DNA from: a virus
Virus record (IMG/VR): IMGVR_UViG_3300008108_000133
Coordinates: 1-59,086 of that record
Direction: 5' to 3' (one strand)
DNA length: 59,086 nt
The translations under genes and the position numbers were made by a program. Each line of letters starts with the position of its first letter. Position 1 is the stretch's first letter. Below, piece by piece: positions 21,332 through 37,765 of the stretch. The notes beneath the pieces are model-generated. The model worked only from the letters and a program-made list of their open reading frames with translations. It was not told the origin of the DNA and searched no databases.

Positions 21332-21538
21332 GACTTATATTATGATTGGATAAATAATAAAAAGTCATCTATTGGTGTGATTGTACAAGACGTTGAAAAA
21401 GTTCTTCCAGAACTGGTATCTGATACTGATCCAAAGACTGTTAATTATGATGGATTGATTGCAGTATTAATTGAAGCAATTAAAGAACAACAAGTTCGTA
21501 TCGAAGAGTTGGAGAATAATAAAATATTAAATGAATAA
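21332..21538 (+). pseudogene. Stranded C-terminal fragment of an S74 chaperone domain
   Basis: An open frame without a usable start (in-frame TAA at 21329-21331) encodes YYDWINNKKSSIGVIVQDVEK, then [25 protein letters not shown] and a Leu-zipper-like end. This closely parallels the C-terminus of the fibre at 47491 ([31 protein letters not shown]) and of 44422. It is the last part of an intramolecular chaperone (peptidase S74) that normally folds and then releases a fibre trimer. The rest of that fibre gene is missing; its TAA overlaps the next gene's ATG region. Confidence 0.82.
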
Positions 21539-22076
21539 ATTGGAGGATTTAATATTTGTTGGAAATAATATCGATGTAATTGATTCTCTGAAAAGTTACA
21601 TCAAAAATTCCAATCTAAAATTTAAATCTGATGATGTGACTACAAAACAAAAATTTACAAAAAATCAGAGAGCATGTGATATTGCTTGGATACCTTGTAA
21701 AAAAAGCAATATTGTAAATGAAGTTCTGACTGATCTTTTAAATTCTGCTAATAATCTTAAATGGAAGTTAAATCTTTCTGAATGGCAATGTAATATACAG
21801 TATACATATTATTATCATTACAATCACCATTATGATTGGCACACTGATGTTTTAGATAATTCTAATCCAGATTTAAAAAGACTGATTACCATAGTTTATT
21901 GTTTAACTCCCAAAATTAATTACAAAGGTTGTAAGTTAGAAATCAAATATAATGATGAAATTTTTTCAAAAAAATTAGATATTGGTGATTATGTTGTTTT
22001 TCCTTCAGATTTAACTCATAGAGCAACTAAACTCATAACTGGAGAAAGAGAAGTATTAGTAGGTTGGTATAAATAA
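21531..22076 (+). CDS. 2-oxoglutarate/Fe(II)-dependent oxygenase
   Basis: 181 residues. The iron-binding triad is visible as HYDWHTDV (H-x-D) and THRATKL (distal His), with the Arg for 2-oxoglutarate in TGEREVLVGW. This is the prolyl-4-hydroxylase-like Fe/2OG fold. Substrate unknown. It starts inside the stop of the S74 remnant and carries a late-promoter motif for the next gene within its last codons. First of five such oxygenase genes in the window. Confidence 0.82.
   Translation: MNKLEDLIFVGNNIDVIDSLKSYIKNSNLKFKSDDVTTKQKFTKNQRACDIAWIPCKKSNIVNEVLTDLLNSANNLKWKLNLSEWQCNIQYTYYYHYNHHYDWHTDVLDNSNPDLKRLITIVYCLTPKINYKGCKLEIKYNDEIFSKKLDIGDYVVFPSDLTHRATKLITGEREVLVGWYK
22068..22075 (+). promoter_or_regulatory. 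T4-type late promoter motif
   Basis: TATAAATA 21 nt before the gene at 22097, overlapping the end of the upstream gene. Confidence 0.6.
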
Positions 22077-22096
22077 TTTTTAATTGGTTTCCTTCA

Positions 22097-22795
22097 ATGG
22101 ATAAAAAAATCACAATATTGGGTGATCCATTTCCACATCTAATTGCTGAAAACTTTTATGATGAGGAAGAGTTAAAACTAATTTGGGAAGTACTTGATTC
22201 AATAACAGAAGAGCAAAAGTTTTTACCTCCCGGAAATGTTCATGGAGCATCTGCATATAAAGATGATAGATTAGTTTTTCTCACAAATCATAAAGCAATA
22301 CGATTAAACGACTTTTATGATGAGAAACCTTATTCAAATATTTTCAAATTATTTAAAAAAAAGTTTGATCCTCAGTTTTTCAATTCTTTTGTGAACAGAT
22401 TTCCTCAATTTTTAAGTTTATCAGATTTAGAAAATGCTCACTGCCTAGTAAAAGCAAGATACTATGCAGATGGAGAATATTACAAACCACATACTGATTA
22501 TAGAAGTAGTTACGCAATATTTACTTATTTCAATAAACAACCGAAAAAATATACAGGAGGAGAATTATATTTCCCTCAATATGGAAACTATCATTTTAAA
22601 TGCGAACACAATACTCTGATTCTTACTCCAGCATATGTGAAGCATTCAGTTAAAAAAGTGAATATTGGGAAAGAAGATTATAGTAATAATTTTGGTAGGT
22701 ATGCCATTACATATTTTATTGGTATGACTCCTTCACCAATGTATCCAGAACTTTCGAATAAATGGAAAATAAAAGAATGGGATTCTGAAGAATGA
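22097..22795 (+). CDS. 2-oxoglutarate/Fe(II)-dependent oxygenase
   Basis: 232 residues. The core is GEYYKPHTDY (H-x-D), a TGGELYFPQY strand typical of prolyl-hydroxylase-like enzymes, ILTPAYVKHSV (distal His), and GRYAITYFIG with the 2OG-binding Arg. It precedes a sulfotransferase-like gene with a 4-nt overlap. Possible substrates are virion proteins or host surface polymers; this is inference. Confidence 0.82.
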   Translation: MDKKITILGDPFPHLIAENFYDEEELKLIWEVLDSITEEQKFLPPGNVHGASAYKDDRLVFLTNHKAIRLNDFYDEKPYSNIFKLFKKKFDPQFFNSFVNRFPQFLSLSDLENAHCLVKARYYADGEYYKPHTDYRSSYAIFTYFNKQPKKYTGGELYFPQYGNYHFKCEHNTLILTPAYVKHSVKKVNIGKEDYSNNFGRYAITYFIGMTPSPMYPELSNKWKIKEWDSEE

Positions 22796-23520
22796 GTAAT
22801 ATCTGTCAAATTTATCACACTTCGCATTGTGGTTCAACATTGATGTCTACTCTGTTGAGATTTTCTTCAGAAGTTTATTCTGAACCTCCTTGGTTGCCTA
22901 CATTATCTAAAAAAGAATTGTCTAAAATCTTGGACGAAAGATCTGATTGTATAATTAAATTTCCAAGCATATATTGCTTCTTTTCTAATTATTATCCTGG
23001 AAAAAAAGTATTTTTGTACCGCAATTTAAAACAACATCTAGTTAAAATTTTGTCATTAGAGAAGAAAAGAATTGACAAAATAGTTTCTCAAGTTGATTGG
23101 TATGGTAATGAATGTTTGCACCCTTTGGTTAAAAAACATTCATTAGAGACTGGTATCAAAAAAATTACAGCAATGTGGGTGAGCAGAATATTATATCTGA
23201 TGGAAGTTGAAGATGTTATGTGGATTAAGTCGAATGATTTTTTTGCAAACAAAAAAGAGATAATGAATAATGTTTGTGAGCACTTCAATGCTCCTAAAGT
23301 TGAAGATTTTTCTATTGCAGAATTTTATGTAAAAGAAGTCGGGTTTAAACCTGGAATAGAAGTTCCTTTGAGTGATATTATTCCAGACACAAAGGATAAA
23401 AAACCTATAGATTCTTCCTTTGGTATTATTGGTAATGATTGTGATGTTAATATTGAAATTGAAACTATAATCTCTTGGGTTCGTGTGAATTTTCCATCAA
23501 TTCCTTATAGTTTACTTTAA
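22792..23520 (+). CDS. Sulfotransferase-like protein
   Basis: 242 residues. The N-terminal SHCGSTLMSTLLR is the phosphate loop (5'-PSB) that binds PAPS in sulfotransferases; the usual Arg or Lys is replaced by Cys-Gly. FLYRNLKQHLVKIL resembles the 3'-phosphate-binding segment. A later Trp-rich helical region matches family size. It would transfer sulfate from PAPS to a sugar or protein. Co-transcribed with the upstream oxygenase. Confidence 0.6.
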   Translation: MSNICQIYHTSHCGSTLMSTLLRFSSEVYSEPPWLPTLSKKELSKILDERSDCIIKFPSIYCFFSNYYPGKKVFLYRNLKQHLVKILSLEKKRIDKIVSQVDWYGNECLHPLVKKHSLETGIKKITAMWVSRILYLMEVEDVMWIKSNDFFANKKEIMNNVCEHFNAPKVEDFSIAEFYVKEVGFKPGIEVPLSDIIPDTKDKKPIDSSFGIIGNDCDVNIEIETIISWVRVNFPSIPYSLL

Positions 23521-23527
23521 GGATTTG

Positions 23528-23581: not shown

Positions 23582-24892
23582 ATGCCTAATCAGTTTATGT
23601 CTCCAGAAGGAGACTTAGAAACCACTAATTATTTTGTTACTGAACATTGGTTGATTGACCAGTATGTTGGTGATAAGTTATTTGGTTGGGGTTATAATTC
23701 TAGTGGACCACTAGGAGATAATACTACAACTACTAGATATGTTCCGGTCACAACATTTGCAGGAGGAACCAACTGGAAGTCTATTGCGGTGGGACAAGGA
23801 TATGGCGGTTCTATAGCAATTAAAACTGATGGAACTTTATGGGGTTGGGGTTCTCAGAGTTTTGGAAATTTGGGTACATTCAATTTTCCATCTGCTAGTA
23901 GAATCACTCCAGTAACAACCTTTTTAGGAGGAACCGACTGGAAACAAGCTTCTGCGGAAAATGAGTGTACGGCAGCAGTTAAAACTGATGGAACTTTGTG
24001 GGTTTGGGGTACATCTACCCAACTAGGAATAAACAGAACTGGTACTAATGTATGTACTCCAGTTACAACATTTTCAGGTGGAACCAACTGGAAACAAGTT
24101 GATATTGCAAGAAGACCATATTCTTTAGGTACTAATGCTAGTTCTATGGCAGCAATCAAAACTGATGGAACCCTATGGGTTTGGGGAGATAATTTTAATG
24201 CAATGTTGGGAGTTAATGATGCAGCTACTAGATGCACTCCAGTCACAATATTTGGAGGAGGGACTAACTGGAGACAAGTTTCGTGCGGAAGCGGTTTTAC
24301 GGCTGCAATAAAAACCGATGGAACTTTATGGACTTGGGGAGTTAATACTTTTGGACAATTAGGTATCAATACAACAACCGATAGATCCACTCCAGTCACA
24401 ACATTCGCAGGAGGAACCAACTGGAAGCAAGTTTCTTGCGGATATTTACATACTACAGCAATCAAAACTGATGGAACCCTATGGATTTGGGGCGCTGGGG
24501 GTAATGGACGATTAGGGGATAATGTATCAATATCAACTAGATCCACTCCAATCACAACATTTGCTGGAGGAAACAATTGGAAACAAGTAAGTGCTGGATG
24601 GTCACATACGGCAGCAATCAAAACTGATGGAACCTTATGGACTTGGGGTTATGATGTTTATGGTTATGGATTATTAGCTCAAGGTTCTACGACTCCATCT
24701 GATAGATCCACTCCAGTTACAACATTTGCTGGAGGAACCAACTGGAAACAAGTTTCTTGTGGAAGATTTCATACTATTGCAGTAACTTCTGGTGAACAAA
24801 TAGATATCTTCGATCCTGCTGCACCTATTGTTACACCACCTGCTCCTCCACCACCTCCACCACCGCCACCAGGTGGTCGCGATGATAACTAA
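23582..24892 (+). CDS. RCC1-repeat beta-propeller protein 1
   Basis: 436 residues. After a 40-residue polar leader there are seven RCC1/BLIP-II-like units of about 48-55 residues; six carry the core A(I/V)KTDGTLW.WG, separated by TPVTTF.GGTNWKQ(V/A)S. Seven units fit one seven-bladed propeller. The C-terminus is a poly-Pro stretch and GGRDDN. The near-identical repeats at DNA level suggest recent expansion. Such propellers bind proteins or glycans; late promoter and fibre-rich context suggest a virion surface protein. Confidence 0.85.
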   Translation: MPNQFMSPEGDLETTNYFVTEHWLIDQYVGDKLFGWGYNSSGPLGDNTTTTRYVPVTTFAGGTNWKSIAVGQGYGGSIAIKTDGTLWGWGSQSFGNLGTFNFPSASRITPVTTFLGGTDWKQASAENECTAAVKTDGTLWVWGTSTQLGINRTGTNVCTPVTTFSGGTNWKQVDIARRPYSLGTNASSMAAIKTDGTLWVWGDNFNAMLGVNDAATRCTPVTIFGGGTNWRQVSCGSGFTAAIKTDGTLWTWGVNTFGQLGINTTTDRSTPVTTFAGGTNWKQVSCGYLHTTAIKTDGTLWIWGAGGNGRLGDNVSISTRSTPITTFAGGNNWKQVSAGWSHTAAIKTDGTLWTWGYDVYGYGLLAQGSTTPSDRSTPVTTFAGGTNWKQVSCGRFHTIAVTSGEQIDIFDPAAPIVTPPAPPPPPPPPPGGRDDN

Positions 24893-24928: not shown

Positions 24929-25612
24929 ATGGAATTTGCACTTATACACGACAATCAATTATTGCTTGGTCCCATCGGATTCAATGTCCGTATGATTAAT
25001 TCTGATTTGGAAGAACTAGAATTAGATGATAGGGTAACATCTCAAAGTTATAGTCAAGTTCCCATTCATTTTTCTGATGGACTTACTCATCTAGTTCTAG
25101 CTAGAAAAGTTGTACCTGAACATGATCCAAAGTATCATAATGTTGGAAATTTTAATTGGGAAATCGTTGAAGATATTGAGGATGATCTTGCAGTAGAAGT
25201 GGTATTTACTTATCCAATTTCAGATAAAACATTAGAGGAAGTAAAAAATATTCGTAAGCAGGAAATCGTACCAACTAGAAAACAAAAAGAAAATACTATT
25301 ATTAAAGTTACAATTAATGATACTGAAGTTGAAGTGCCTACAACAAGAGAAGAGAGATTAATATTAGCAAGTAAAGTAGCTTCAGAACCACAATCTCATA
25401 ATTATAAATTTGGAAATACTTGGTTAGAAGTCACTAAAGAAAATCTTCAGTATATTATTGGAGAAATTGATAAGGTTGTTCAGGAAGCATATGATTGGGA
25501 ACTAGCAAAACTTCAAGAAATTGATTCATGTGAAACAATTGATGATGTTTATAATGTAGAGATTGCTCCATCTTTAAAAAATGCTCTAGATTTAGAGATT
25601 CCTACAATTTAG
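24929..25612 (+). CDS. Putative fibre-assembly/DUF4376-like protein
   Basis: 227 residues, acidic, with a beta-rich N-terminal half (MEFALIHDNQLLLGPIGFNVR) and a helical C-terminal half beginning near EEVKNIRKQEI and ending ENLQYIIGEIDKVVQEAYDWE. The latter resembles the C-terminal helix pair of DUF4376/tail-fibre assembly proteins. Its place between two RCC1 genes suggests it helps fold or attach those proteins. Medium confidence for the family, low for role. Confidence 0.5.
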   Translation: MEFALIHDNQLLLGPIGFNVRMINSDLEELELDDRVTSQSYSQVPIHFSDGLTHLVLARKVVPEHDPKYHNVGNFNWEIVEDIEDDLAVEVVFTYPISDKTLEEVKNIRKQEIVPTRKQKENTIIKVTINDTEVEVPTTREERLILASKVASEPQSHNYKFGNTWLEVTKENLQYIIGEIDKVVQEAYDWELAKLQEIDSCETIDDVYNVEIAPSLKNALDLEIPTI

Positions 25613-25616
25613 TAAC

Positions 25617-26849
25617 ATGCCAACTTTCAATTTTAAACTTTCTGACGGTAGAGATTTAGGAGATGTTGTTTCCTGGATTCCTAAAGATTACTTGCTATCT
25701 GTTTATCCGCAGATTGGAAACCAGTTAATTACTCCAGAGTTGTGGACTTGGGGTTATACTAATAATGGAGATCTGGGAACAAATGATAATATCTCAAGAT
25801 CAACACCAGTTACAACATTTGCAGGTGGTGCTAACTGGAAACAATGTTCCGGTAGGTATGCGATAAAAAATGATGGGACCTTATGGACTTGGGGTTGGGG
25901 ATTATTAGGAAATCTTGGGAATAATGCAACAACCGATAGGTCTACTCCAGTCACAACATTTGCTGGAGGAACCAACTGGAAACAAGTTGCTAATGGATAT
26001 CTGTATGCTGTTGCTGTTAAAACTGATGGAACTTTATGGGGTTGGGGATTTAATGGAAGAAATTCATTAGGATCTAATGATACCACAAATAGAAATAGTC
26101 CAATCCCAACATTTGCGGGAGGAACCAATTGGAAACAAGTTGATTCTGGATATGCTCATGTTGCAGCAGTTAAAACCGATGGAACTTTATGGACTTGGGG
26201 ATATAGTCTTGGAACTTTTTCAGAAGAGGCTGGACAATTAGGTACTAATGCGACAGGAAATAGACCTACTCCAGTCACAACATTTGCTGGTGGAACCAAT
26301 TGGAAACAAGTTTCTTGCGGGCAGTATCATACTGCAGCAATTAAAACTGATGGAACTTTATGGACTTGGGGGTATAATAATTGGGCCCAAATAGGTGACA
26401 ATACAACTAGATCTAGATCAACTCCAGTCACAACATTTGCAGGAGGGACAAATTGGAAACAAGTTTCTTGTGGGCAGTATCATACTGCAGCAATCAAAAC
26501 TGATGGAACATTATGGACCTGGGGACGAGGATCTAGTGGTAGACTTGGGACTAATAATGGTTCAGATAGGTCCACTCCAGTCACAACATTTGCTGGTGGA
26601 ACCAATTGGAAACAAATTGCTAGTGGAAATAATAATACTGCAGCAACCAAAACTGATGGAACTTTGTGGGTTTGGGGAGATGGTTCATTTGGAGTGTTAG
26701 GTAATAATGTAAACGGGACGAGTGCATTAACTCCAGTCACAACATTTGCAGGAGGAACTAATTGGAAAACTTTAGGATTTTTGAGATTTTATAGTGGACC
26801 TGGAATTTTTACAGCAATCAAAACTTCGGATGATTTACAAGGTATTTAA
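25617..26849 (+). CDS. RCC1-repeat beta-propeller protein 2
   Basis: 410 residues. A short N-terminal domain (MPTFNFKLSDGRDLGDVVSW) leads into seven RCC1-like units; six carry K(T/N)DGTLW.WG. Spacer TPVTTFAGGTNWKQ(V/I) is shared almost letter for letter with RCC1 proteins 1 and 3. It starts four bases after the preceding stop. Probably a secreted-phase or virion propeller; the partner is unknown. Confidence 0.85.
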   Translation: MPTFNFKLSDGRDLGDVVSWIPKDYLLSVYPQIGNQLITPELWTWGYTNNGDLGTNDNISRSTPVTTFAGGANWKQCSGRYAIKNDGTLWTWGWGLLGNLGNNATTDRSTPVTTFAGGTNWKQVANGYLYAVAVKTDGTLWGWGFNGRNSLGSNDTTNRNSPIPTFAGGTNWKQVDSGYAHVAAVKTDGTLWTWGYSLGTFSEEAGQLGTNATGNRPTPVTTFAGGTNWKQVSCGQYHTAAIKTDGTLWTWGYNNWAQIGDNTTRSRSTPVTTFAGGTNWKQVSCGQYHTAAIKTDGTLWTWGRGSSGRLGTNNGSDRSTPVTTFAGGTNWKQIASGNNNTAATKTDGTLWVWGDGSFGVLGNNVNGTSALTPVTTFAGGTNWKTLGFLRFYSGPGIFTAIKTSDDLQGI

Positions 26850-26885: not shown

Positions 26886-28235
26886 ATGAACCCACTTGAA
26901 CTAGTTGCAAAGACACTGTATTCCTTTAAAGAACAACAACTTACTTTTGAACTTTTGGATGCTTTTGGAAAAAGAGCAGAAATATTTCAACAATATGATG
27001 AAGTTGCAAAAATTTTCTTTGAACTCAAGAACTTTTCTAAAGCAATTGAGTATGGTGAAAAGGCACTTAGATTATCTCAAACAAAGGAAGAAAAATATAC
27101 AACTTCCAAGAACTTGATTAATGCTTATAATCAGTCAAATCATCCAGAGAAATCTATTACTCAAATTGAAAAACTGAAAAAACAAAATCCTCAAGATGCT
27201 GAACTTCTTTTGGAAGAAACCTTTGCATATTCTGCACTGAACCAGAAAGAGAAATCCGAAAAACTTCTCTTCAATCTTCTTCAAAAGAAACTACCAGAAG
27301 AGATTGAAAGAAAGGCATATCATAATTTATCGGGACATTATTTCCGTAAAGATGATATTCATACTGGACTTCAACACTTTCTCAAAGCAGGAGAAGTAGA
27401 AGCATATAAGAATCAAAAACTCCCAGAGTTTGAAAAGTGGGATGGTACTATTACACCAGGAAGAACGATTATTATTGATAATCAATGTGGTGCTGGTGAT
27501 GAGGTAGTTCATATTCGGTTTATGAAACATCTTAAAGACTTGGGAATGAAACCGATTTGGAGTTCCACTCGCAGAGAACTTGTAGAACTTTTCAACTATA
27601 ATGGTTATGATGCTGTTTGCATTTATGATAAACCAGAGTTTCCAAAAGATGCCTGCTGGGTTTATGGTCTGGCACTTCCTTATTATCTCAATTTGGAAAT
27701 CAAAGATATGGGAAGAGATCCTTATCTCCAAACACTCCCAAAGTATGATAAAAAATGGGAATGGATGAAAGAAGATAATGGATATAAGATTGGAATGTTC
27801 TGGGCATCCAGTTCTGGATTTGAACAGAATTCTTTTCGTTCAGTAGAACTCAAAGATTATATGAGTGTTCTGGGAAATAAAGGATATTCATTATATTCAC
27901 TTCAAACTTATACTGATAATAAAGATGCTGATGAATATCCAGAAATCAAACAGTCTCTATCAGTTCCTAATAGAGAGTATGCTGATACATTTTCTATTAT
28001 TCAGAACCTTGATTTGGTTGTAACTTCCTGCAGTTTTGTGGCTCATGTTGCAGCATCATTAGGTAAAGAAGTCTGTGTCTTTATTCCTATTATGGAATAT
28101 TATGTTTGGACTTCATCTACAGGAAAGTGTATGTGGTATGGAGATAATGTTCATCTGTTCCGTCAAAAGAAACCAAGAACTTGGGATGCACCCATCAAAG
28201 AGTTTTGGGAGTTTATGAATGATAGAAGAGTATAA
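26886..28235 (+). CDS. TPR protein fused to a GT9/GT41-like glycosyltransferase
   Basis: 449 residues. Residues about 20-180 are helical TPR-like repeats (AKIFFELKNFSKAIEYGEKAL, typical TPR spacing). Residues about 190-445 resemble heptosyltransferase (GT9) or O-GlcNAc-transferase-like folds: IDNQCGAGDEVVHIRF near the start and a C-terminal nucleotide-sugar site ILDLVVTSCSFVAHVAA-like segment with GKEVCVFIP. It is GT-B in type. It would transfer a sugar from a nucleotide donor; acceptor unknown. Overlaps the next gene by 17 nt. Confidence 0.75.
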   Translation: MNPLELVAKTLYSFKEQQLTFELLDAFGKRAEIFQQYDEVAKIFFELKNFSKAIEYGEKALRLSQTKEEKYTTSKNLINAYNQSNHPEKSITQIEKLKKQNPQDAELLLEETFAYSALNQKEKSEKLLFNLLQKKLPEEIERKAYHNLSGHYFRKDDIHTGLQHFLKAGEVEAYKNQKLPEFEKWDGTITPGRTIIIDNQCGAGDEVVHIRFMKHLKDLGMKPIWSSTRRELVELFNYNGYDAVCIYDKPEFPKDACWVYGLALPYYLNLEIKDMGRDPYLQTLPKYDKKWEWMKEDNGYKIGMFWASSSGFEQNSFRSVELKDYMSVLGNKGYSLYSLQTYTDNKDADEYPEIKQSLSVPNREYADTFSIIQNLDLVVTSCSFVAHVAASLGKEVCVFIPIMEYYVWTSSTGKCMWYGDNVHLFRQKKPRTWDAPIKEFWEFMNDRRV

Positions 28236-28677
28236 TCTTTCATTTCTTAATTTAAATACTATCAAGAGTAAACTTCTTGAAATAGAAACTTCTTCTCACG
28301 GACTTGTAACAAAAGGTGTTTCCACTTATAATCATGGAATGCCTGTTTTGATGTATCCAGAACTGTCTGGATTAAGAAATGTTCTTAAACAATATGTTAG
28401 ACTATATTGCAATAAGTATGAGATTCCACCATTAAAGTTTATCAATAGTTGGTTCAATATTTCACAACCAGGAAATAAACTCAAAGCACATAAACACGAA
28501 GAGAGTGTTGTAAGTGGAGCATTTTATATTTCTGGTGCAACTCCACTCATTTTTCCAGATACATCAATCAAACCTTATCCTGGGTTGTTAGTAATCTTCT
28601 CAAGTGATTTAGTTCATTATACCGAAGAAGAAACGGAAGAAAGAATTATTATTAGTTTTAACACAGATTACTTATGA
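28219..28677 (+). CDS. Small 2-oxoglutarate/Fe(II) oxygenase-like protein
   Basis: 152 residues. INSWFNISQPGNKLKAHKHEESVVSG contains the first His ligand region, SSDLVHYTEEETEERIIISFN holds the distal His and the Arg. The layout is that of the CHP02466-like putative 2OG-oxygenases common in cyanophages. The second ligand would be Glu (HEE) rather than Asp. Overlaps both neighbours. Confidence 0.68.
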   Translation: MIEEYNLSFLNLNTIKSKLLEIETSSHGLVTKGVSTYNHGMPVLMYPELSGLRNVLKQYVRLYCNKYEIPPLKFINSWFNISQPGNKLKAHKHEESVVSGAFYISGATPLIFPDTSIKPYPGLLVIFSSDLVHYTEEETEERIIISFNTDYL

Positions 28678-30815: not shown

Positions 30816-31180
30816 GAGAGTGTGGAGAATGCACTGCTTGTTGCACTTGGTTACAAGGTTATGCTTATGGTTATGAGTTTGGTAGTGGAAAGTCTTGTAA
30901 GTTCTTATGTGAATCCGGATGTAGTGTACATAAGGTAAGACCAAAAGTATGTGAAGGATATTTCTGTGCTTGGGCTCAAGAACTTATATCTGAAGAAATG
31001 AGACCTGATAAGTGTGGAGTTCTTGTTTCTGTGGAAAATAATGAAAACGGTCAGTATCTTAGAATTGTTCCAATCAAAAAAGAAATAAATAAAGATATAC
31101 TAGAATATTTTAAAAATTGGAGTGTTATAATGAACACTCCTGTGATTTATCCAAAAAATAATTCCTGGGAAGTCCTCTAA
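30812..31180 (+). CDS. YkgJ-type CxxCxxCC metal-binding protein
   Basis: 122 residues. The N-terminal CGECTACCTW is the CxxCxxCC signature of the YkgJ family (putative Fe or Zn chelation); CKFLCESGCSVHKVRPKVCEGYFC supplies the second Cys set and the RPxxC element. Biochemical role of the family is not well defined; in this setting it may support the iron-dependent oxygenases. Overlaps both neighbours by 1-4 nt. Confidence 0.82.
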   Translation: MRECGECTACCTWLQGYAYGYEFGSGKSCKFLCESGCSVHKVRPKVCEGYFCAWAQELISEEMRPDKCGVLVSVENNENGQYLRIVPIKKEINKDILEYFKNWSVIMNTPVIYPKNNSWEVL

Positions 31181-33459
31181 TGCCTACTTTTTACAACTAC
31201 ACTGAGAATGGAGTAGTATACTCTCTTGATGATGTTTTTGTACCTGCTGATGCTTTTAGGCAGGGAAACCTATGGGTATGGGGATCTAGATCTATAGGAA
31301 ATTTTAGAGGAACTAATTCTGGTGTTTGTACTCCTGTCACCACATTTGCGGGATCTTCAAACTGGCTCACTGTTGCTAATGGAAATTATAATAGTGCAGC
31401 AATCAAAACTGATGGAACCTTATGGACTTGGGGTGAAGGATTTGGTGCAGGAATCGGAGATGGATTTAAAATCGATAGATGCACCCCAGTTACAACATTC
31501 GCAGGAGGAAACAATTGGAAGCAAGTTTCTTGTGCATACAATACTGGAGCAGCAATAAAGACTGATGGAACCTTATGGGTTTGGGGTGGTAATTATTATG
31601 CACTACTTGCTGATAATACGCAAACTGATAGATGTACTCCTGTCACCACATTTGCTGGAGGAACCAACTGGAAACAGGTAAGCCTTGGATATCACGCAGC
31701 AGCAATCAAAACTGATGGAACTCTATGGACTTGGGGGCAAATTGAATATGGTGCATTGGGTAATAATACATCTGGTACAGTTACTTGGGGTAGAAAAGTA
31801 TCAACACCAATCACAACATTTGCAGGAGGAACCAACTGGAAACAAGTTTCGACTTCCATAAATGGGAACACCGCAGCAATCAAAACTGATGGAACCTTAT
31901 GGGTTTGGGGTACAAATTCTTACGGAACTCTAGGGACTAATTCGGAGAGAGCTTCTCTTACTCCAGTCACAACATTTGCAGGAGGGACCAACTGGAAACA
32001 AGTTTCTGCTGGTGGATATAATGTATCAGCAATCAAAACTGATGGAACCTTATGGACTTGGGGACAAAGATCACACTCGGCAATTAACTATACAAGACCT
32101 CGTGGTATATCTACTCCATCTATGATAATCGGTGGTGGAAATAATTGGAAATCTGTTAGTACTGGGGGTTTCATAATAGCAACTAAAACCGATGGAACTC
32201 TTTGGTCTTGGGGAGAAAGACAGTCATCTATAGAAGGATTTTTAGTAAATAGAACTCCTATTTCTCCAAGAAATATTTTCCCAGGCACAAATTGGTCTAT
32301 TGCTTATGGAAATGATGATATGTATGTAATAGGCACCGATGGGAATTTATGGGGATGGGGAACTAATAGTAATGGAGAACTTGGAATTAATGCTACTGGA
32401 ACAAGAAGCACTCCTGTTACAACAATTACTGGTGGAACAAACTGGAAATCAGTTAGTGCGGGATTTAACACTGTAGCAGCAGTTAAAACTGATGGAACCT
32501 TATGGACTTGGGGTAGTAACTATAGAGGTTCAATAGGAGACGATACATCAACTAATAGAAGAACTCCAGTCACAACATTTGCGGGAGGAACTAATTGGTC
32601 AAATGTGAGTATTACTGATAATCAATGTGCAGCAGTTAAAACTGATGGAACTCTGTGGGTTTGGGGGAGGAATTTTAATTTTGCACTTGGAACTAATGAA
32701 GGAACATCTGTTACAAAACGAACACCAGTTACAACATTTTCGGGAGGAACTAATTGGAGTTCTGTAACTGTTGGATCTAATCTTATGCAGGCAATCAAAA
32801 CTGATGGAACATTATGGGTTTGGGGTGCGAATAATGCTGGTCAACTTGGAGTCAATGATACAATTGATAAAGCTACTCCCGTTACAACATTTGCGGGAGG
32901 AACAAATTGGTCGCAATTAGGAAGGGGGGGATCCTCAGCTATTAAAACTGATGGAACCTTATGGGTTTGGGGATATAATTCATACGCTCGTCTGGGTATC
33001 GGTGATGATCCAAATAACAAATCAACTCCAGTCACAACATTTGCAGGAGGAACTAATTGGAGTTCTATTTCAGATTTTTCTAATAAAATAGCAGCAATAA
33101 AAACTGACGGAACCCTCTGGATGTGGGGAGATAATGGTGGTTCTGGTAAATTTGGAGTTTTGGGTATTGGTGGGGAAACAAATGGAGCTGTCTTAACTCC
33201 TATCACAACATTTGCGGGAGGAACTAACTGGAAACTAGTCAATTGCTCTTCTTATTCTACTATTAATGCGGCAATCAAGACTGATGGAACCTTATGGATG
33301 TGGGGTGAACAGGGAAATGCTCAGTTTGGAATTGGTTCTAATGCTACCGTTTATGCTGCAACACCTATTACAACATTCGCAGGAGGAACCAATTGGAAAC
33401 AAGTTGAGGTAAAATATAGAAGAGTTTCTGCAATTCAATATCAAGACGATTACGTATAA
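31180..33459 (+). CDS. RCC1-repeat beta-propeller protein 3 (13+ units)
   Basis: 759 residues. An N-terminal MPTF segment like that of protein 2, then about 14 RCC1/BLIP-II-like units, thirteen with the KTDGTLW.WG core or a variant (GTDGNLW). Two seven-bladed propellers in tandem would fit. The size is roughly double that of proteins 1 and 2, as expected from duplication of a whole propeller. Two units in the middle lack the usual TPVTTFAGG spacer, possibly the hinge. Context suggests a virion or released surface protein. Confidence 0.85.
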   Translation: MPTFYNYTENGVVYSLDDVFVPADAFRQGNLWVWGSRSIGNFRGTNSGVCTPVTTFAGSSNWLTVANGNYNSAAIKTDGTLWTWGEGFGAGIGDGFKIDRCTPVTTFAGGNNWKQVSCAYNTGAAIKTDGTLWVWGGNYYALLADNTQTDRCTPVTTFAGGTNWKQVSLGYHAAAIKTDGTLWTWGQIEYGALGNNTSGTVTWGRKVSTPITTFAGGTNWKQVSTSINGNTAAIKTDGTLWVWGTNSYGTLGTNSERASLTPVTTFAGGTNWKQVSAGGYNVSAIKTDGTLWTWGQRSHSAINYTRPRGISTPSMIIGGGNNWKSVSTGGFIIATKTDGTLWSWGERQSSIEGFLVNRTPISPRNIFPGTNWSIAYGNDDMYVIGTDGNLWGWGTNSNGELGINATGTRSTPVTTITGGTNWKSVSAGFNTVAAVKTDGTLWTWGSNYRGSIGDDTSTNRRTPVTTFAGGTNWSNVSITDNQCAAVKTDGTLWVWGRNFNFALGTNEGTSVTKRTPVTTFSGGTNWSSVTVGSNLMQAIKTDGTLWVWGANNAGQLGVNDTIDKATPVTTFAGGTNWSQLGRGGSSAIKTDGTLWVWGYNSYARLGIGDDPNNKSTPVTTFAGGTNWSSISDFSNKIAAIKTDGTLWMWGDNGGSGKFGVLGIGGETNGAVLTPITTFAGGTNWKLVNCSSYSTINAAIKTDGTLWMWGEQGNAQFGIGSNATVYAATPITTFAGGTNWKQVEVKYRRVSAIQYQDDYV

Positions 33460-33476: not shown

Positions 33477-34259
33477 ATGAAAACATTATTTTTTCTTTCT
33501 GGTCTTCCTAGATCAGGTTCTACTTTACTTGGATCAATTCTTTCACAACATCCAAAGTTACAAGCAACACCTACATCACCACTTGCCGATTTGCTTTGTT
33601 GGATTGATGAAGGTTTTTCAAAGATAGACTTACAATATACTTACGATAAACCACAAGTAGTATATAATACTTACAATTCAATCCTTGAGAACTTCTATAA
33701 TCATATAGATAAACCTTGTATTCTTGACAAACATCGTGGTTGGTGTAAGAATGTTCCTTCTATTGAAAAGTTTCTCAAACAGAAACCAAAAATCATAGCA
33801 ACTAACAGAAGAATCAGTGAAGTTCTTGCCTCTTATATTCTACTCATTCAAAGAAATAATGAGGCAGATAATTTTGTAGACGCACATTTGAGAAGAGAAG
33901 GGAAACAAATTACCACAGACAATCGTATTGAGTGCCTTTGGAAGAATTATGTTTCTGACCCTTATGAAAGTTTAGTCTATGGATTAACTCATAATAGAGA
34001 CAATATTCATTTAGTGGACTATAATGATCTTACACAAGACCCAGAACAAGAACTTAAAAAGATTTACGAGTTTCTGGAAATAGAAAATCATATTCACGAT
34101 CTTTTTAATATTTTTAATACTTGTGCTGAAGAAAAAGACCACGAATGGGGAATTAATAATCTTCATCAAATTCGTACAAAACTTCAAAGAACTTCACCAC
34201 CACCAGAAGAAGTGATTGGTGAAGAGAATGTAGAACTTTATGATAAGTTTAATATATGA
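33477..34259 (+). CDS. Sulfotransferase
   Basis: 260 residues. FLSGLPRSGSTLLGSIL is a textbook 5'-phosphosulfate-binding loop for PAPS; IIATNRRISEVLASYILL is the 3'-phosphate-binding segment, and the conserved downstream VDYNDLTQDPEQELKKIYEFL matches the family. It sulfates a hydroxyl or amino group; targets could be glycans or tyrosines. Located between an RCC1 gene and an oxygenase, in the same coupled operon. Confidence 0.87.
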   Translation: MKTLFFLSGLPRSGSTLLGSILSQHPKLQATPTSPLADLLCWIDEGFSKIDLQYTYDKPQVVYNTYNSILENFYNHIDKPCILDKHRGWCKNVPSIEKFLKQKPKIIATNRRISEVLASYILLIQRNNEADNFVDAHLRREGKQITTDNRIECLWKNYVSDPYESLVYGLTHNRDNIHLVDYNDLTQDPEQELKKIYEFLEIENHIHDLFNIFNTCAEEKDHEWGINNLHQIRTKLQRTSPPPEEVIGEENVELYDKFNI

Positions 34260-34861
34260 ATAATTTTACACATATATCATTACCAAATCCAGGAGTGACT
34301 ACTGGTAATCTTCCAGAAGAACTTTATAAACAAGTAATAGAAGAGGTAAATGAAATCTCTTTTGATTTTCATTCTCATTCCAATTACAATAATGGTCTTG
34401 CAGGAAATATAGAAAATCAATATGAGTTGCAAAAGTCTATGCCAGTTTTGCAACCATATCTCAATCAAATGTGTAAGTCATATACAGACTATTGGAACTT
34501 TTATAAAAAACCAGATAACTTTAAACTCACTCATCTGTGGGTCAATTTCCAAAAGAAGAATGAGTTCAATCCAATTCATCATCACAGCAGCACTTTTAGT
34601 TTTGTTTGCTGGTTAAAGATTCCATACAAAGTAGAAGAAGAATTGAATGCGGCTCATGTAAAAGATACAAAAGCAAAAGCGGCATCAACATTTCAATTCA
34701 TTTATCCAAATATTTTAGGGCAACTTACTTTGGAAACTTTGTATGTAAATCAGGATTGGTGTGGTAGAATAGTATTATTCCCAGCACATCTATCACATTG
34801 CGTCTATCCATTTTCTACAAGTGATGATTATAGAATTTCAATATCTGGCAATTTAGAATGA
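34256..34861 (+). CDS. 2-oxoglutarate/Fe(II)-dependent oxygenase
   Basis: 201 residues. FNPIHHHSSTFSFVCWL carries the first metal ligands and VLFPAHLSHCVYPFSTSDDYRISISGN the distal His and 2OG-binding Arg. This is the type of putative hydroxylase often found in T4-like cyanophages. Overlaps sulfotransferase and glycosyltransferase genes by 4 nt each. Confidence 0.82.
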   Translation: MNNFTHISLPNPGVTTGNLPEELYKQVIEEVNEISFDFHSHSNYNNGLAGNIENQYELQKSMPVLQPYLNQMCKSYTDYWNFYKKPDNFKLTHLWVNFQKKNEFNPIHHHSSTFSFVCWLKIPYKVEEELNAAHVKDTKAKAASTFQFIYPNILGQLTLETLYVNQDWCGRIVLFPAHLSHCVYPFSTSDDYRISISGNLE

Positions 34862-35547
34862 AACGAACATTACAATCTTTTTATCCAACAGAAAATTCTT
34901 TTATAGAAAACTCTTATATTATTACTCTACCAAACAATGAAACTTCAAAGACCTTAACTGAAAGATGTATAGAGAGTTGTGAATCTGTAGGTCAACCTTA
35001 TACTCTCTGGGAAGGTTTTGATGGTTCTTCTGGTGAGATTGTAATCCCAGAGCATCTTCAAGATAAAGAATACCTAAAGTGGTTAAAAGTCAATCATAAG
35101 TTTATGACACCATCTCAAATTGGGTGTTGTTTATCTCACTTCAGTTTATGGTTTCATTGTATTACAATAGATAGACCTATTGTAATATTAGAGCACGATG
35201 CTATAATGGTAGAGAAATTCTTTGGTCCCTATCCTTTTTATAATGCAGTCACATATCTTGGTTGTAGGGAACAGAAGTATGATGGTATGCCCGTTCAACC
35301 AACTCCAATTCATATGCAATCACCTGATAATTTCGTTCGTAAAATAGGTAGAGCACACGCATATGCAATTGACCCTGCTGTTGCGAAGTTAATGGTCTCT
35401 CGTCTGTTGGTAGATGGGATTACAACAATGAACGATGAATTTATGCAAGCGAATTGGTTTACAATTATCCAATATGGTTTTTATGCATATGATGAACCTG
35501 GAGAAACAACAATACAAACACCCCTATATCCTTTTAATAACCAATGA
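34858..35547 (+). CDS. Glycosyltransferase family 25-like (LPS type)
   Basis: 229 residues. SYIITLPNNETSKTLTERCIESC, TPSQIGCCLSHFSLW, PIVILEHDAIM and GRAHAYAIDPAVAKLM follow in the order of GT25 galactosyl/collagen-type transferases, which act on LPS or on hydroxylysine in collagen. A GT25 homologue beside hydroxylases and collagen-like fibres is notable. Coupled at both ends. Confidence 0.75.
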   Translation: MKRTLQSFYPTENSFIENSYIITLPNNETSKTLTERCIESCESVGQPYTLWEGFDGSSGEIVIPEHLQDKEYLKWLKVNHKFMTPSQIGCCLSHFSLWFHCITIDRPIVILEHDAIMVEKFFGPYPFYNAVTYLGCREQKYDGMPVQPTPIHMQSPDNFVRKIGRAHAYAIDPAVAKLMVSRLLVDGITTMNDEFMQANWFTIIQYGFYAYDEPGETTIQTPLYPFNNQ

Positions 35548-36233
35548 AAATTGAAGTATTTTTAAGACACTGCTACACATCCAAAGTTAATCTTTCGGGG
35601 GCAAATCGTCCAGAGTGGTGGGACAAAGAAAAGGTATTTCAAAACTTCAAGAATACCCTGAATCCAGAAACTACCAATTACACAATCATCTTTGATGAGT
35701 GTTATGGAAAACAAGAAGACACTTTTCTCAAAGATGAAAATGTAGTAACCATTAATTGTGGCAAAGAAAGTGAAAGTTTTTGTAAGACACTAGACCATAT
35801 TCTTTCACAAGACTTTGATGATGATACAATCATTTATTTTCTTGAAGATGATTATTTACATCGTCCAGAATGGGATAGGACTCTCATAGATGGATTTACC
35901 CTACCAGTTCATTATGTGACCTTGTACGACCACGGAGACAAGTATCAGGAGATGTATAAGGACTTTATGACTAAAGTTCTTGCAACAAAATATTCTCATT
36001 GGATGCCAACACCATCAACCACAAATACTTTTGCAGTGAAATTCAGAACACTCAAAGAAGACCAAGAAATTCACAAACACTTCTCAACTGGTTTTGAACC
36101 TTCCGCAGACCACGGTAAATTTTTGGAACTACATAAGAGAGGAAGAAATTTAATATCAAGTATTCCTGGTTATTCTACACACTGTCATAAAGAATTTTTA
36201 TCACCCTGTATTGATTGGAGCACATATCTATGA
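35544..36233 (+). CDS. Putative GT-A-type glycosyltransferase
   Basis: 229 residues. IIYFLEDDYLHRPEWDRTLI resembles the D-x-D strand of GT-A enzymes, and the later TSTNTFAVKF segment matches cyanophage sugar-transfer proteins. Donor and acceptor unknown. ATGA coupling at both ends. Confidence 0.6.
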   Translation: MKIEVFLRHCYTSKVNLSGANRPEWWDKEKVFQNFKNTLNPETTNYTIIFDECYGKQEDTFLKDENVVTINCGKESESFCKTLDHILSQDFDDDTIIYFLEDDYLHRPEWDRTLIDGFTLPVHYVTLYDHGDKYQEMYKDFMTKVLATKYSHWMPTPSTTNTFAVKFRTLKEDQEIHKHFSTGFEPSADHGKFLELHKRGRNLISSIPGYSTHCHKEFLSPCIDWSTYL

Positions 36234-37765
36234 AAGTTACACTATATGCAATCGCAAAGAACGAAGAAAAGAACATTGAAAAGTTCCTTAAGAATGCAGA
36301 GAAATTTGATGATGTAGTTGTAGTTGATACTGGAAGCACAGATAATACAGTTCAACTACTTAAAGATGCTGGTATTAAAGTCTACGAGCATCCACAGACT
36401 CGTGCAGAGTTTGATTTTTCAGTAGCAAGAAATCAAGCACTATCTTATGTGGAAACTGATTGGGCATTTTCACTTGATTTTAATGAGGATGTAGATGAGT
36501 TTCATCCAGAAGGATTTGGTGTAATTGCAGATGAGTTCACTACTTTCAATCATTTGAGATTTGATGATAATGGAACTGATGAACCAGTACAATCAAATGA
36601 AGTTCATATAAGATTTCATAGAACAAAGAATTATACTTGGGTCAATGCAGTTCACGAAGTTCCAAACTTTGTTCCCACAGAAGAATATCCAAATGCATCT
36701 GCTGTAGATACAACGATTAAGATTACAAAGAAAATTCATAAGTCTGTAGACAAAGAACTCTTTTACTTCTCAATCTGCGAACGAGAGCATAAGAAAGACC
36801 CATCTAATTGGTATTGGATTTGGTTTATCTTTAATCATTACTTTAATGTCCAGAACACAGAAAAAGCACTTGAGTACGGACAAGAGTTTTTGAATGTTTC
36901 TAAACCATACTTCGATAGTTTTAGAATTATTGCTTTTATCCGTTGCAGTCAAATTCTACTTTCTATCGGAGATATGCAAAGAGGAATGAATTATGCCTTC
37001 CATGCAGTAAGTGAAGCAATGAATATGGGAGGAGTTCATCTATCACAAGCATTTGGATATTTGTTTGAACTTTCTAAAAGATTGAATAATCCAAATCTTA
37101 CAATCTTTGCGACAGCATTTAATCCAGATATGCTATCTGCACCAGAAAGAATTGGTGCCATTGATAAATTGTTCTTGACGAATCTTGAAGATATCCCATC
37201 TTGCTGGAGAGGACATCGTAGATTTGCGGAATGGTTAGTTACTCAAGTTAAACCAGAAGTAACCGTTGACCTTGGAGTTGATTGGGGATTTTCTACTTTC
37301 TGTTTTGCTATGCCTCGTATCGGTCAGGTTTATGGTATCGATACTTTTGAAGGAGATCAATTTACAGGAGAAAATCACGGTTTTTATGAGTATGTCTTGG
37401 ATAAACAAGAAAAACTCTTTATGAAAAATAATGTAACTTTTATCAAAGGTTTATTTGATGATGTTGCAAAAACTTGGGATAAAAAGATTGATATCCTTCA
37501 CATTGATGGAGACCATGCTTACGAATCTGTGAAGCACGATTATGAAACTTGGAGTCCTTTCTTAAAGGAAAATGGTGTGATTCTTTTCCACGATACTTGT
37601 ATTGAAGAACTGAATGGTAATCAATACGGAGTGAAGAAATTCTTTGAAGAACTTGATCTCCCTAAGATAACATTTACTCATACTTTTGGTCTTGGTGTTG
37701 CTTCTAAAAATAAAGAACTAATTGAATATATCAAGTCTAATTTTGATTTGAATAATCCCCTATGA
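36230..37765 (+). CDS. GT2 glycosyltransferase fused to a class I methyltransferase
   Basis: 511 residues from ATG 36230 (TTG at 36215 is an alternative). The first 110 residues are a family 2 glycosyltransferase core (MKVTLYAIAKNEEKNIEKFL, VVVDTGSTDNT, FSLDFNED as the D-x-D equivalent). A helical TPR-like middle follows, and residues about 345-500 are a class I AdoMet methyltransferase of the Methyltransf_24 type (VTVDLGVDWGFSTFCFA, DILHIDGDHAYESVKHDY, ILFHDT). It could add a sugar and methylate it. Confidence 0.8.
   Translation: MKVTLYAIAKNEEKNIEKFLKNAEKFDDVVVVDTGSTDNTVQLLKDAGIKVYEHPQTRAEFDFSVARNQALSYVETDWAFSLDFNEDVDEFHPEGFGVIADEFTTFNHLRFDDNGTDEPVQSNEVHIRFHRTKNYTWVNAVHEVPNFVPTEEYPNASAVDTTIKITKKIHKSVDKELFYFSICEREHKKDPSNWYWIWFIFNHYFNVQNTEKALEYGQEFLNVSKPYFDSFRIIAFIRCSQILLSIGDMQRGMNYAFHAVSEAMNMGGVHLSQAFGYLFELSKRLNNPNLTIFATAFNPDMLSAPERIGAIDKLFLTNLEDIPSCWRGHRRFAEWLVTQVKPEVTVDLGVDWGFSTFCFAMPRIGQVYGIDTFEGDQFTGENHGFYEYVLDKQEKLFMKNNVTFIKGLFDDVAKTWDKKIDILHIDGDHAYESVKHDYETWSPFLKENGVILFHDTCIEELNGNQYGVKKFFEELDLPKITFTHTFGLGVASKNKELIEYIKSNFDLNNPL

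What the first reader, a model, noticed from the sequence alone, without database searches (positions are those of the whole stretch)
21531..37765. Candidate virion-decoration operon: hydroxylases, sugar transferases and sulfotransferases interleaved with propeller proteins
Largely coupled plus-strand genes encode four Fe/2OG oxygenase-like proteins, two PAPS-type sulfotransferases, about seven glycosyltransferase-like proteins (including a GT25, the family that also glycosylates hydroxylysine in collagen) and a YkgJ metal-binding protein, mixed with three RCC1 propeller genes and flanked by collagen-like fibres. A hydroxylate, glycosylate, sulfate path acting on fibre triplets would be a new kind of phage surface coding. 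A path aimed at host polysaccharide or at DNA is possible too.
Basis: inference. Interest (0 to 1): 0.75.

Follow-up and report, generated by a model that had tools for sequence, protein, structure and literature searches.

The report
Phage adhesin operon with decorating enzymes

Summary
The operon is real. In the window, a cyanophage fragment related to Synechococcus phage S-SRM01, 13 genes from a TPR-glycosyltransferase to a DUF6165 gene are coupled (11 of 12 junctions overlap), with a propeller (RCC1) gene inside the run. The order recurs in dozens of viral contigs and, strongly diverged, in a marine single-cell virus. The enzymes travel with RCC1 propeller genes and tail fibres instead. 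RCC1 proteins have slot-specific ends but repeats homogenised within each genome, as in a recombining receptor-binding repertoire. A hydroxylase pair found here and in one other lineage sits beside an RCC1 protein with a polyproline tail in both. Best reading: a tail-adhesin locus carrying its own protein glycosylation/sulfation pathway, hydroxylation optional. Propeller versus neighbouring fibre as target is unresolved, and a host-glycan role is not excluded. No chemistry is shown. One of the two claimed sulfotransferases and the YkgJ label rest on motifs only.

The parts
21531..22076 (+). ox1: 2OG-Fe(II) oxygenase, prolyl/lysyl-hydroxylase (PKHD)-like
   Evidence: PF13640 7.6e-11; PDB 3dkq PKHD-type hydroxylase 5e-4; HTD and distal His conserved with L131
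22097..22795 (+). ox2: 2OG-Fe(II) oxygenase, PKHD-like
   Evidence: PF13640 1.5e-8; NCBIfam Fe2+-dependent dioxygenase (YbiX/PKHD group), below cut-off; HTD, H183 and R201 invariant in 3 sequences
22792..23520 (+). STa: partner of ox1/ox2; sulfotransferase-like loop (GSTL) only, assignment unconfirmed
23582..24892 (+). RCC1a: slot-a propeller protein with polyproline tail
   Evidence: RCC1 repeats PF00415 1.2e-48; tail PPAPPPPPPPPPGGRDDN
24929..25612 (+). chap: small protein between two propeller genes, weakly similar to tail-fibre proteins
   Evidence: phrog_1141 / phrog_10508 tail E 0.006-0.009; no Pfam hit at 0.01; present in nearly all relatives that reach it
25617..26849 (+). RCC1b: slot-b propeller protein
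   Evidence: PF00415 1.3e-53
26886..28235 (+). TPRGT: TPR domain + GT-B glycosyltransferase (GT9-like); core enzyme
   Evidence: model pLDDT 85; VIA Z 16.6 to GT9 3tov, 15.3 to TibC; Foldseek SPY/OGT, low TM-scores; TPR_2 in 17 of 18 members, weak GT9 in 6 of 18
28219..28677 (+). ox3: 2OG-Fe(II) oxygenase (PF13759)
   Evidence: 8e-13; alignment
28674..29357 (+). GT1: candidate GT-A enzyme with invariant DID
   Evidence: no Pfam hit
29347..30114 (+). GT2: candidate glycosyltransferase, unassigned
   Evidence: in 30 of 32 records; no family hit over a cut-off
30111..30815 (+). GT3: GT-A fold glycosyltransferase
   Evidence: model pLDDT 81; VIA Z 12.8 heparosan synthase, 12.2 LH3 residues 296-509
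30812..31180 (+). YkgJ-like Cys-rich protein (CxxCxxCC); core gene
   Evidence: invariant Cys in 11 sequences; phrog_9155 4.8e-18; no Pfam hit
31180..33459 (+). RCC1c: slot-c propeller protein inside the coupled enzyme run
   Evidence: PF00415 4.8e-50; 1-nt overlap with the Cys-rich gene
33477..34259 (+). STb: PAPS-type sulfotransferase; core enzyme
   Evidence: PF13469 2.9e-16; best PDB matches protein-tyrosine sulfotransferases 4e-9
34256..34861 (+). ox4: 2OG-Fe(II) oxygenase (PF13759), optional module
   Evidence: 1.7e-11; in 8 of 32 records
34858..35547 (+). GT25 glycosyltransferase, optional module
   Evidence: PF01755 2.1e-13; in 4 of 32 records
35544..36233 (+). GT5: candidate GT-A enzyme with invariant EDD
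36215..37765 (+). GT2-family glycosyltransferase fused to a methyltransferase domain
   Evidence: PF00535 1.4e-10 and PF13578 9.7e-23
37762..38118 (+). DUF6165 protein
   Evidence: 2.1e-11
47491..48630 (+). collagen-like tail fibre; its C-terminal region matches fibre C-termini, and its best-hit relatives lie just upstream of RCC1a in many loci

Best explanation
This is a conserved tail-adhesin locus of cyanophages with a built-in protein-modification pathway. Three RCC1 propeller proteins (slots a, b, c) are virion proteins with slot-specific ends, probably for docking, and variable propellers, probably for recognition. TPRGT (TPR arm plus GT9-like catalytic domain) puts a first sugar on a virion protein, the variable set of GT-A, GT25 and GT2 enzymes extends it, STb sulfates the product, and 2OG oxygenases hydroxylate residues or sugars in an optional, exchangeable way; ox1/ox2 would hydroxylate the polyproline tail of RCC1a. 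The likeliest targets are the RCC1 proteins or the tail fibre beside them. Shown: gene order, coupling, families, predicted folds, co-occurrence, repeat homogenisation. Inferred: virion location (by analogy to E. coli phage W70), protein as substrate, order of steps, and the link between polyproline and ox1/ox2.
For: Near-fixed gene order in S-SRM01-type contigs and, at about 23-47% identity, in marine single-cell virus AG-345-E08 and 13 loci retrieved with its TPRGT (six of those 13 look like one virus). RCC1 lies directly upstream of TPRGT (gap -19 to 105 nt) in 38 of 39 evaluable S-SRM01-type loci (45 examined: 3 without intact TPRGT, 3 with under 1 kb upstream; many near-duplicates), and 1.1-1.2 kb upstream with two genes between in 13 of 13 loci. 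Among 16 named records TPRGT is in S-SRM01, BUCT-ZZ01 and AG-345-E08 only, exactly those with RCC1; in the whole phage collection the 4 records matching TPRGT are all among the 21 matching RCC1b. RCC1c lies inside the coupled run. TPRGT's structural neighbours include TibC, which glycosylates an adhesin, and OGT/SPY, which modify proteins (functions recalled); STb's best solved relatives are protein-tyrosine sulfotransferases. RCC1 N-terminal caps are slot-specific (63.6% within a slot, 28-29% between), while repeats from different slots are 71.1% identical within a genome against 63.1% between genomes (0 of 1000 label shuffles reach this) and 63.5% for the same slot between genomes; against close relatives 70.7 vs 66.1%, and in AG-345-E08-type loci 58.3 vs 50.4%. 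Three RCC1 proteins were found by mass spectrometry in virions of E. coli phage W70 (PMC11370258, passages). ox1-ox2-STa, found in one other lineage, are again next to a polyproline-tailed RCC1a (Fisher p 0.01).
Against: No proteomic or chemical data exist for these virions here. RCC1 is not required: contig L052 (TPRGT 40%) has fibre-like genes, two sulfotransferases, the Cys-rich protein, a methyltransferase and TPRGT but no RCC1 on 60,792 bases, and L120/L121 have glycosyltransferases and one PF13640-type oxygenase straight after a fibre without the RCC1, sulfotransferase and other oxygenase slots, with RCC1 genes only elsewhere on their contigs. So the fibre may be the target. LPS heptosyltransferases share TPRGT's fold (Z 14.8-15.4, tied with TibC). 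T4-type late promoters TATAAATA stand before ox2, RCC1a and chap in the window, but their number there is not above chance, and they do not precede enzyme or RCC1 genes of relatives. PF13640 oxygenases are common in cyanophages (14 of 15 named records), and AG-345-E08 has one right after RCC1b without a polyproline RCC1. W70's authors suggest a DNA-packing role for its RCC1 proteins. The polyproline link rests on two lineages, and L040 has a P6 linker without ox1/ox2.
Confidence: 0.57

Rival explanations
1. The enzymes remodel host surface glycan (LPS or capsule) during infection, for example to block rival phages; the RCC1 genes are just neighbours in the variable fibre region.
For: TPRGT shares the GT9/heptosyltransferase fold. 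The jumbo-phage review reads cyanophage glycosyltransferase clusters (P-SSM2) and a 2OG-oxygenase cluster (S-SSM6a) as surface-polysaccharide or metabolite systems (PMC7824862, passages). A nucleotide-sugar epimerase follows the locus in S-SRM01, and a gene annotated as UDP-2,3-diacylglucosamine diphosphatase (a lipid A step) lies about 11 kb before it; an epimerase/dehydratase also follows in AG-345-E08.
Against: No flippase, polymerase or lipid-carrier transferase is among the family hits of the interval or the annotated S-SRM01 neighbours (many are hypothetical). RCC1c is translationally embedded, TPRGT carries a TPR arm and is tied to RCC1, and the sulfotransferase is closest to protein-modifying enzymes among solved structures.
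Confidence: 0.23
2. One reading: hydroxylation, glycosylation and sulfation of collagen-like fibre triplets.
For: Collagen-like fibres in the window and in 22 of 33 locus-bearing records at E<=0.001 (20 over cut-off); arrays rich in Thr (146 in 186 triplets), which could carry O-glycans without hydroxylation.
Against: Free assortment; 0 Lys and 0 Pro in the window's long arrays, 2 Lys in 1172 triplets over 31 sequences.
Confidence: 0.06
3. The enzymes are independent cargo in a recombination-prone fibre region with no common substrate.
For: Mosaic identities: ox3, ox4 and GT25 at 92-94% among other enzymes at 50-67% in L020 (TPRGT 89%); presence of ox3, GT1, ox4 and GT25 varies.
Against: TPRGT, Cys-rich protein and sulfotransferase are in 32 of 32 records (31 of them retrieved with TPRGT or STb, which favours these two) and recur as a set in the RCC1-free L052 and in AG-345-E08 and most related loci that reach far enough.
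Confidence: 0.1
4. A small-molecule, peptide or DNA modification pathway.
For: Radical-SAM/FkbM and GT2-methyltransferase proteins nearby; sub-threshold similarity of 36215-37765 to peptide S-glycosyltransferase SunS.
Against: None of the family hits in the interval is a precursor peptide, synthetase or DNA-base synthesis enzyme; the locus lies among fibre genes.
Confidence: 0.04

Closest known systems
Synechococcus phage S-SRM01 locus, 222-234 kb (PQC13_gp335-348)
   Same: Same order, enzymes 84-94% identical (DUF6165 62%), RCC1 62-65%
   Different: No ox1, ox2, STa, ox4 or GT25 there; no collagen match in the genome. In the main text of its paper (PMC8557907) 'regulator of chromosome', sulfotransferase, oxygenase and collagen occur 0 times (term search; supplements not seen)
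RCC1 virion proteins of Vequintavirinae (W70) and of GAP32
   Same: Consecutive RCC1 genes; W70_237-239 and GAP32 GAP_001 detected in virions by mass spectrometry (PMC11370258, PMC5259590, passages)
   Different: No annotated enzyme set beside RCC1 in 6 of the 7 other RCC1 phage neighbourhoods that I fetched (many genes hypothetical); the seventh, Aphanizomenon phage Yong-DA, has glycan genes around a dockerin/RCC1 gene. W70's own neighbourhood was not looked at
Mycobacteriophage virion glycosylation (Freeman et al. 2023; seen only as one sentence and a citation in PMC12619734)
   Same: Phage glycosyltransferases modifying phage virion proteins
   Different: Capsid and tail-tube C-termini there; here a putative adhesin target with sulfation and hydroxylation
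TibC / bacterial autotransporter heptosyltransferases
   Same: GT9-type fold; TibC glycosylates a repetitive adhesin (recalled)
   Different: TPR arm, phage context, donor unknown; sequence identity 9%
Collagen LH3/PLOD and mimivirus L230 (recalled)
   Same: PHROG phrog_61 joins a GT25-matching part and an oxygenase part, hit separately by window genes
   Different: No Lys substrate in the window arrays, and ox1/ox2 lie 12 kb from GT25; LH3 resemblance to GT3 is by GT-A fold only
Viral prolyl 4-hydroxylase of PBCV-1 (Eriksson 1999, cited in PMC9301287, passage)
   Same: Viral hydroxylase; polyproline as a substrate class is recalled
   Different: Substrate here is inferred from gene adjacency only

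Membership tests
Collagen lysyl-hydroxylation/glycosylation pathway | Lys in collagen triplets as substrate | tested here: not met
   0 Lys in 186 window triplets, runs of 10 or more
Collagen lysyl-hydroxylation/glycosylation pathway | Enzymes and collagen substrate always found together | tested here: not met
   S-SRM01 and 13 further records with all or part of the locus without collagen; collagen in 5 of 13 phages without TPRGT
RCC1 phage virion proteins | RCC1 propeller repeats over Pfam cut-off | tested here: met
RCC1 phage virion proteins | Presence in the virion | not testable with these tools
   Only by analogy to W70 and GAP32
Phage virion glycosylation systems | Glycosyltransferases beside virion genes | tested here: met
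Phage virion glycosylation systems | Glycan on a virion protein | not testable with these tools
   needs mass spectrometry
GT41 (OGT/SPY) | TPR repeats fused to a GT-B catalytic domain | tested here: met
GT41 (OGT/SPY) | Catalytic domain of GT41 rather than GT9 type | tested here: inconclusive
   GT9 chains align best (Z 16.6, rmsd 3.2), OGT Z 12.8 at rmsd 17
PAPS sulfotransferase (33477-34259) | 5'-PSB loop and 3'-PB Arg/Ser | tested here: met
   conserved in 12 sequences; motif names recalled
PAPS sulfotransferase (22792-23520) | Profile similarity to sulfotransferases | tested here: not met
   its profile had only 2 sequences
Prolyl hydroxylase (ox1, ox2) | 2OG-Fe(II) family with HxD...H and Arg | tested here: met
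Prolyl hydroxylase (ox1, ox2) | Hydroxylation of peptidyl proline | not testable with these tools
   only the adjacent polyproline tail
Diversity-generating retroelement | Reverse transcriptase in the genome | tested here: not met
   0 of 19 records with PF00078, most of them fragments
Cyanophage LPS/capsule clusters (P-SSM2 type) | Flippase, polymerase or lipid-carrier steps in the cluster | tested here: inconclusive
   none among the family hits of the interval or the annotated S-SRM01 neighbours, but several proteins are unassigned and genes elsewhere are not excluded

The most novel reading that the evidence does not exclude
A phage carries a recombining three-slot repertoire of propeller adhesins together with its own post-translational chemistry: TPR-guided protein glycosylation, sulfation, and prolyl hydroxylation of a polyproline tail, so that receptor recognition is diversified both by shuffling repeats and by swapping decoration enzymes.
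Probability: 0.25. Interest if true: 0.87.

Novelty: new variant of a known kind. Interest (0 to 1): 0.66.

Why it matters
If true, phage adhesins would be glycosylated and sulfated by enzymes encoded in the same coupled operon, conserved between S-SRM01-type and marine cyanophage-like viruses. It offers a concrete substrate for cyanophage 2OG oxygenases and prolyl hydroxylases, whose use one paper calls cryptic (PMC9301287, passage), and a concrete host-range locus in which repeats homogenise within a genome while docking ends stay fixed.

Tried and rejected
Collagen as the target: rejected on free assortment and residue content. Conserved late promoters at the locus: not supported; TATAAATA before RCC1a 0 of 19, RCC1b 0 of 23, RCC1c 0 of 26, TPRGT 0 of 26, chap 1 of 22, against coll2-type fibre 3 of 13 and hub 3 of 15; 17 plus-strand versus 2 minus-strand sites in 499,993 bases; in the window 7 sites, 33 of 100 shuffles have as many. 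DGR: no reverse transcriptase in 19 records. Bacterial source of TPRGT: the one genome scan gave no confirmed relative (finds close relatives only). A wider polyproline/hydroxylase survey was uninformative, because CCN runs also read as poly-Gly on the other strand. Papers: the RCC1 passages of the prasinovirus paper that were shown (12 of 18 places for all terms) are strain numbers; searches for cyanophage + RCC1 + tail fiber, RCC1 + bacteriophage + tail fiber + glycosyltransferase, cyanophage + sulfotransferase + glycosyltransferase + oxygenase, and cyanophage + prolyl 4-hydroxylase listed nothing whose title concerns this locus (most listed papers not opened). PDB sequence searches with TPRGT, GT1 and GT3 profiles gave no glycosyltransferase match that I would use.

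Sampling limits: the 13 control phages were picked by hand for variety from the 60 rows shown of 164 matching records. IMG/VR contigs are fragments, often near-duplicates, and their habitats were not looked up; 'S-SRM01-type' and 'AG-345-E08-type' mean similarity only. Counts are of records, not independent events. Searches used hand-reduced lists of loci (still holds some near-duplicates); one search used only repeats of exactly 51 residues (203), and 3 of its 71 proteins had no slot label. The STa scan found no relative although a 78%-identical copy exists in L131, so these scans miss relatives and 'one other lineage' is a lower bound. The Fisher test of collagen against TPRGT in complete phages is not significant (p 1.0): the point is the counterexamples, not an anti-correlation. 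The polyproline Fisher test ignores relatedness and includes a truncated slot-a protein (L034).

Full report
What the window is. The window is a 59,086-base IMG/VR virus record. Its operon is closest to Synechococcus phage S-SRM01 from a Singapore reservoir (Kyanoviridae), which has the same block at 222-234 kb; the best matching place covers 43% of the interval at 81% DNA identity. psbA, a D2-like photosystem gene (by eye) and fibre genes surround it.

The observation. Twenty genes were examined from 21531 to 38709. Of the 13 genes from TPRGT to DUF6165, 11 of 12 junctions overlap and one has a 17-nt gap. Domain support is uneven. Four 2OG-Fe(II) oxygenases, one sulfotransferase, GT25, a GT2-methyltransferase and three RCC1 proteins pass curated cut-offs. 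TPRGT and GT3 are glycosyltransferases by predicted fold. GT1 and GT5 have invariant DxD-type motifs. GT2 and STa stay unassigned, STa after four tests. The YkgJ label rests on invariant cysteines.

Conservation. Scans of IMG/VR with TPRGT and with STb gave 45 and 31 loci, many of them shared contigs or near-duplicates. The usual order is fibre, RCC1a, chap, RCC1b, TPRGT, ox3, GT1, GT2, GT3, Cys-rich protein, RCC1c, STb, (ox4, GT25), GT5, GT2MT, DUF6165, with optional genes in and out (its output was cut in the middle, and part of the missing rows is given). In 32 reduced records (S-SRM01 and 31 contigs retrieved with TPRGT or STb, so those two are favoured) TPRGT, the Cys-rich protein and STb are in 32, GT2 and GT3 in 30, GT5 and GT2MT in 29, DUF6165 in 26, ox3 in 23, GT1 in 18, ox4 in 8 and GT25 in 4; some absences are contig ends. 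L028 is a natural minimal form: three RCC1, chap, TPRGT, Cys-rich protein, STb, DUF6165. A marine single-cell virus record (AG-345-E08) has fibre, RCC1, small protein, RCC1, a PF13640 oxygenase, an unassigned gene, TPRGT, a PF13759 oxygenase, GT1, RCC1, sulfotransferase, GT25, a PF13759 oxygenase, an ox4 relative, an unassigned gene, an ox5 relative, Cys-rich protein, GT3 and a further PF13640 oxygenase; relatives of window genes are at about 23-47% identity. The 13 loci retrieved with its TPRGT (six look like one virus) follow this order with small differences as far as they reach. In lake phage BUCT-ZZ01 a fibre, a small protein, a 700-aa RCC1/BNR protein and a TPRGT relative are neighbours.

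Collagen fails. S-SRM01's whole genome has no Pfam Collagen match though it has the locus. Of 26 further records, the 13 with all or part of the locus (AG-345-E08, BUCT-ZZ01, 11 AG-345-E08-type contigs; most are fragments) have none, while 5 of 13 cyanophages without TPRGT have it (P-SSM2, S-CAM9, ACG-2014f, S-CAM7, and S-SSM7 below cut-off). In S-SRM01-type records as a group collagen is nevertheless common (22 of 33 at E<=0.001, 20 over cut-off), because fibres there often are collagen-like. The window arrays hold 186 triplets (runs of 10 or more) with 0 Lys, 0 Pro and 146 Thr; over 31 sequences there are 2 Lys and 74 Pro in 1172 triplets. The locus with most Pro (L025, 41) has none of the four interval oxygenases in place, but a distant ox4-like ORF (24%) lies downstream on the same contig (L072). 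One exception must be told: a minus-strand gene at 16930-17499 has a short Pro-rich collagen stretch ([12 protein letters not shown]...), just under the Pfam cut-off. It is a possible hydroxylase substrate, but lies outside the operon, on the other strand.

RCC1 and fibres are what the enzymes travel with. Among 15 named phages RCC1 is in 2 and TPRGT in the same 2; AG-345-E08 has both. In the phage collection the 4 records that match TPRGT (S-SRM01 twice, AG-345-E08, BUCT-ZZ01) are all among the 21 that match RCC1b. On IMG/VR contigs RCC1 is present in 41 of 43; the misses are L052's contig and L122's, where no TPRGT was seen. RCC1 lies directly upstream of TPRGT in 38 of 39 evaluable S-SRM01-type loci. 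The exceptions matter: L052, and L120/L121, keep enzymes after fibre genes without RCC1 in between. So the neighbouring fibre is a live alternative target. The sulfotransferase family is looser: relatives of STb occur in phages such as S-SKS1, which has no RCC1.

RCC1 proteins behave like a repertoire. Each slot has its own N-terminal cap (63.6% identity within a slot, 28-29% between slots) and usually its own C-terminal ending. The repeats of different slots within one genome are 71.1% identical, against 63.1% for different slots between genomes (0 of 1000 label shuffles reach the difference) and 63.5% for the same slot between genomes. Measured per protein pair the values are 70.7% across slots of one genome, 66.1% for the same slot in close relatives (TPRGT at least 85% identical) and 61.2% in distant ones; a small AG-345-E08-type sample gives 58.3% against 50.4%. 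Lengths run from 294 to 2291 residues (some may be truncated). Six of 51 repeat columns exceed 3 bits of entropy (11, 13, 14, 24, 45, 46) while much of the rest is nearly invariant (only 51-residue repeats with a fixed anchor were used, so columns 1, 3-7, 9 and 10 are invariant by construction). This is what gene conversion among three adhesin genes would leave. No reverse transcriptase was found in 19 records. That RCC1 proteins can be virion parts is published for E. coli phage W70 (three consecutive ones) and GAP32 (passages); W70's authors suggest DNA packing, which I consider unlikely here given the fibre context, without proof.

Mechanism. The gene set shared by the minimal locus L028 and by L052 is TPRGT, a Cys-rich protein and sulfotransferase, which I read as the core: a first sugar on a protein, then sulfation. 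TPRGT's best structural neighbours are GT9 enzymes, including TibC, which modifies an adhesin, and LPS heptosyltransferases, tied in score (functions recalled). STb's best solved relatives are protein-tyrosine sulfotransferases. Extra glycosyltransferases, the methyltransferase fusion and oxygenases vary and are exchanged singly: ox3, ox4 and GT25 of L020 are 92-94% identical to the window while most other enzymes there are 50-67% (TPRGT 89%).

The polyproline clue. ox1, ox2 and STa were found together in one other lineage (L131-L133, three contigs with the same gene content), placed between a fibre and RCC1a; the scans miss relatives, so this is a lower bound. In both lineages RCC1a ends in a polyproline tail (PPAPPPPPPPPPGGRDDN; PPPPPAPPPPPPGGGGDDN). 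Of 25 distinct slot-a proteins only these two and L040 (an internal P6 linker, no ox1/ox2 in its locus) have four or more prolines in a row (Fisher p 0.01). ox1's only significant solved relative is a PKHD-type hydroxylase. So ox1/ox2 are candidate prolyl hydroxylases for that tail. Against this, the sample is two lineages, PF13640 oxygenases are common in cyanophages, and AG-345-E08 has one next to an RCC1 gene without a polyproline tail.

Verdict. The alternative of host glycan remodelling keeps about one chance in four to five; I moved its odds up by 0.01 and the main reading down by 0.01 on re-checking the S-SRM01 annotation, which has a lipid A-type gene upstream.

Noticed in passing
16930-17499 (-): Small protein with a Cys-flanked, Pro-rich collagen stretch ([12 protein letters not shown]..., 9 triplets); no match in 50,697 phage records.
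   Followed up: partly
L043 3095-9970 and L044 14308-18963: Giant RCC1 genes (2291 and 1551 aa) in the same slots where relatives have about 400 aa, i.e. extreme repeat expansion.
   Followed up: no
L120 and L121: Contigs in which the RCC1, sulfotransferase, Cys-rich and most oxygenase slots are absent together while the glycosyltransferases remain after a fibre.
   Followed up: partly
49614-51716 (+): FkbM methyltransferase and radical SAM domains (with weak TPR and SPASM hits) in one 700-aa protein beside the fibre block; related ORFs lie near the locus in several relatives.
   Followed up: no
9637-11445 (+): Subtilisin-family protease with a weak RTX-like calcium repeat between a fibre-like gene and psbA.
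   Followed up: no
window 47491-48630 compared with L131 5463-7454: In relatives a fibre best matching this protein often lies just upstream of RCC1a (in L131 upstream of ox1); in the window ox1 is preceded by non-fibre genes, which suggests a rearrangement.
   Followed up: partly
window 6483-8288 and fibres of relatives: Collagen-like arrays of these phages are almost free of Lys, and Pro-rich only in some lineages.
   Followed up: partly
S-SRM01 record 210536-211240 (L001 1372-2076): Gene annotated as UDP-2,3-diacylglucosamine diphosphatase (lipid A pathway) about 11 kb upstream of the RCC1 locus.
   Followed up: no
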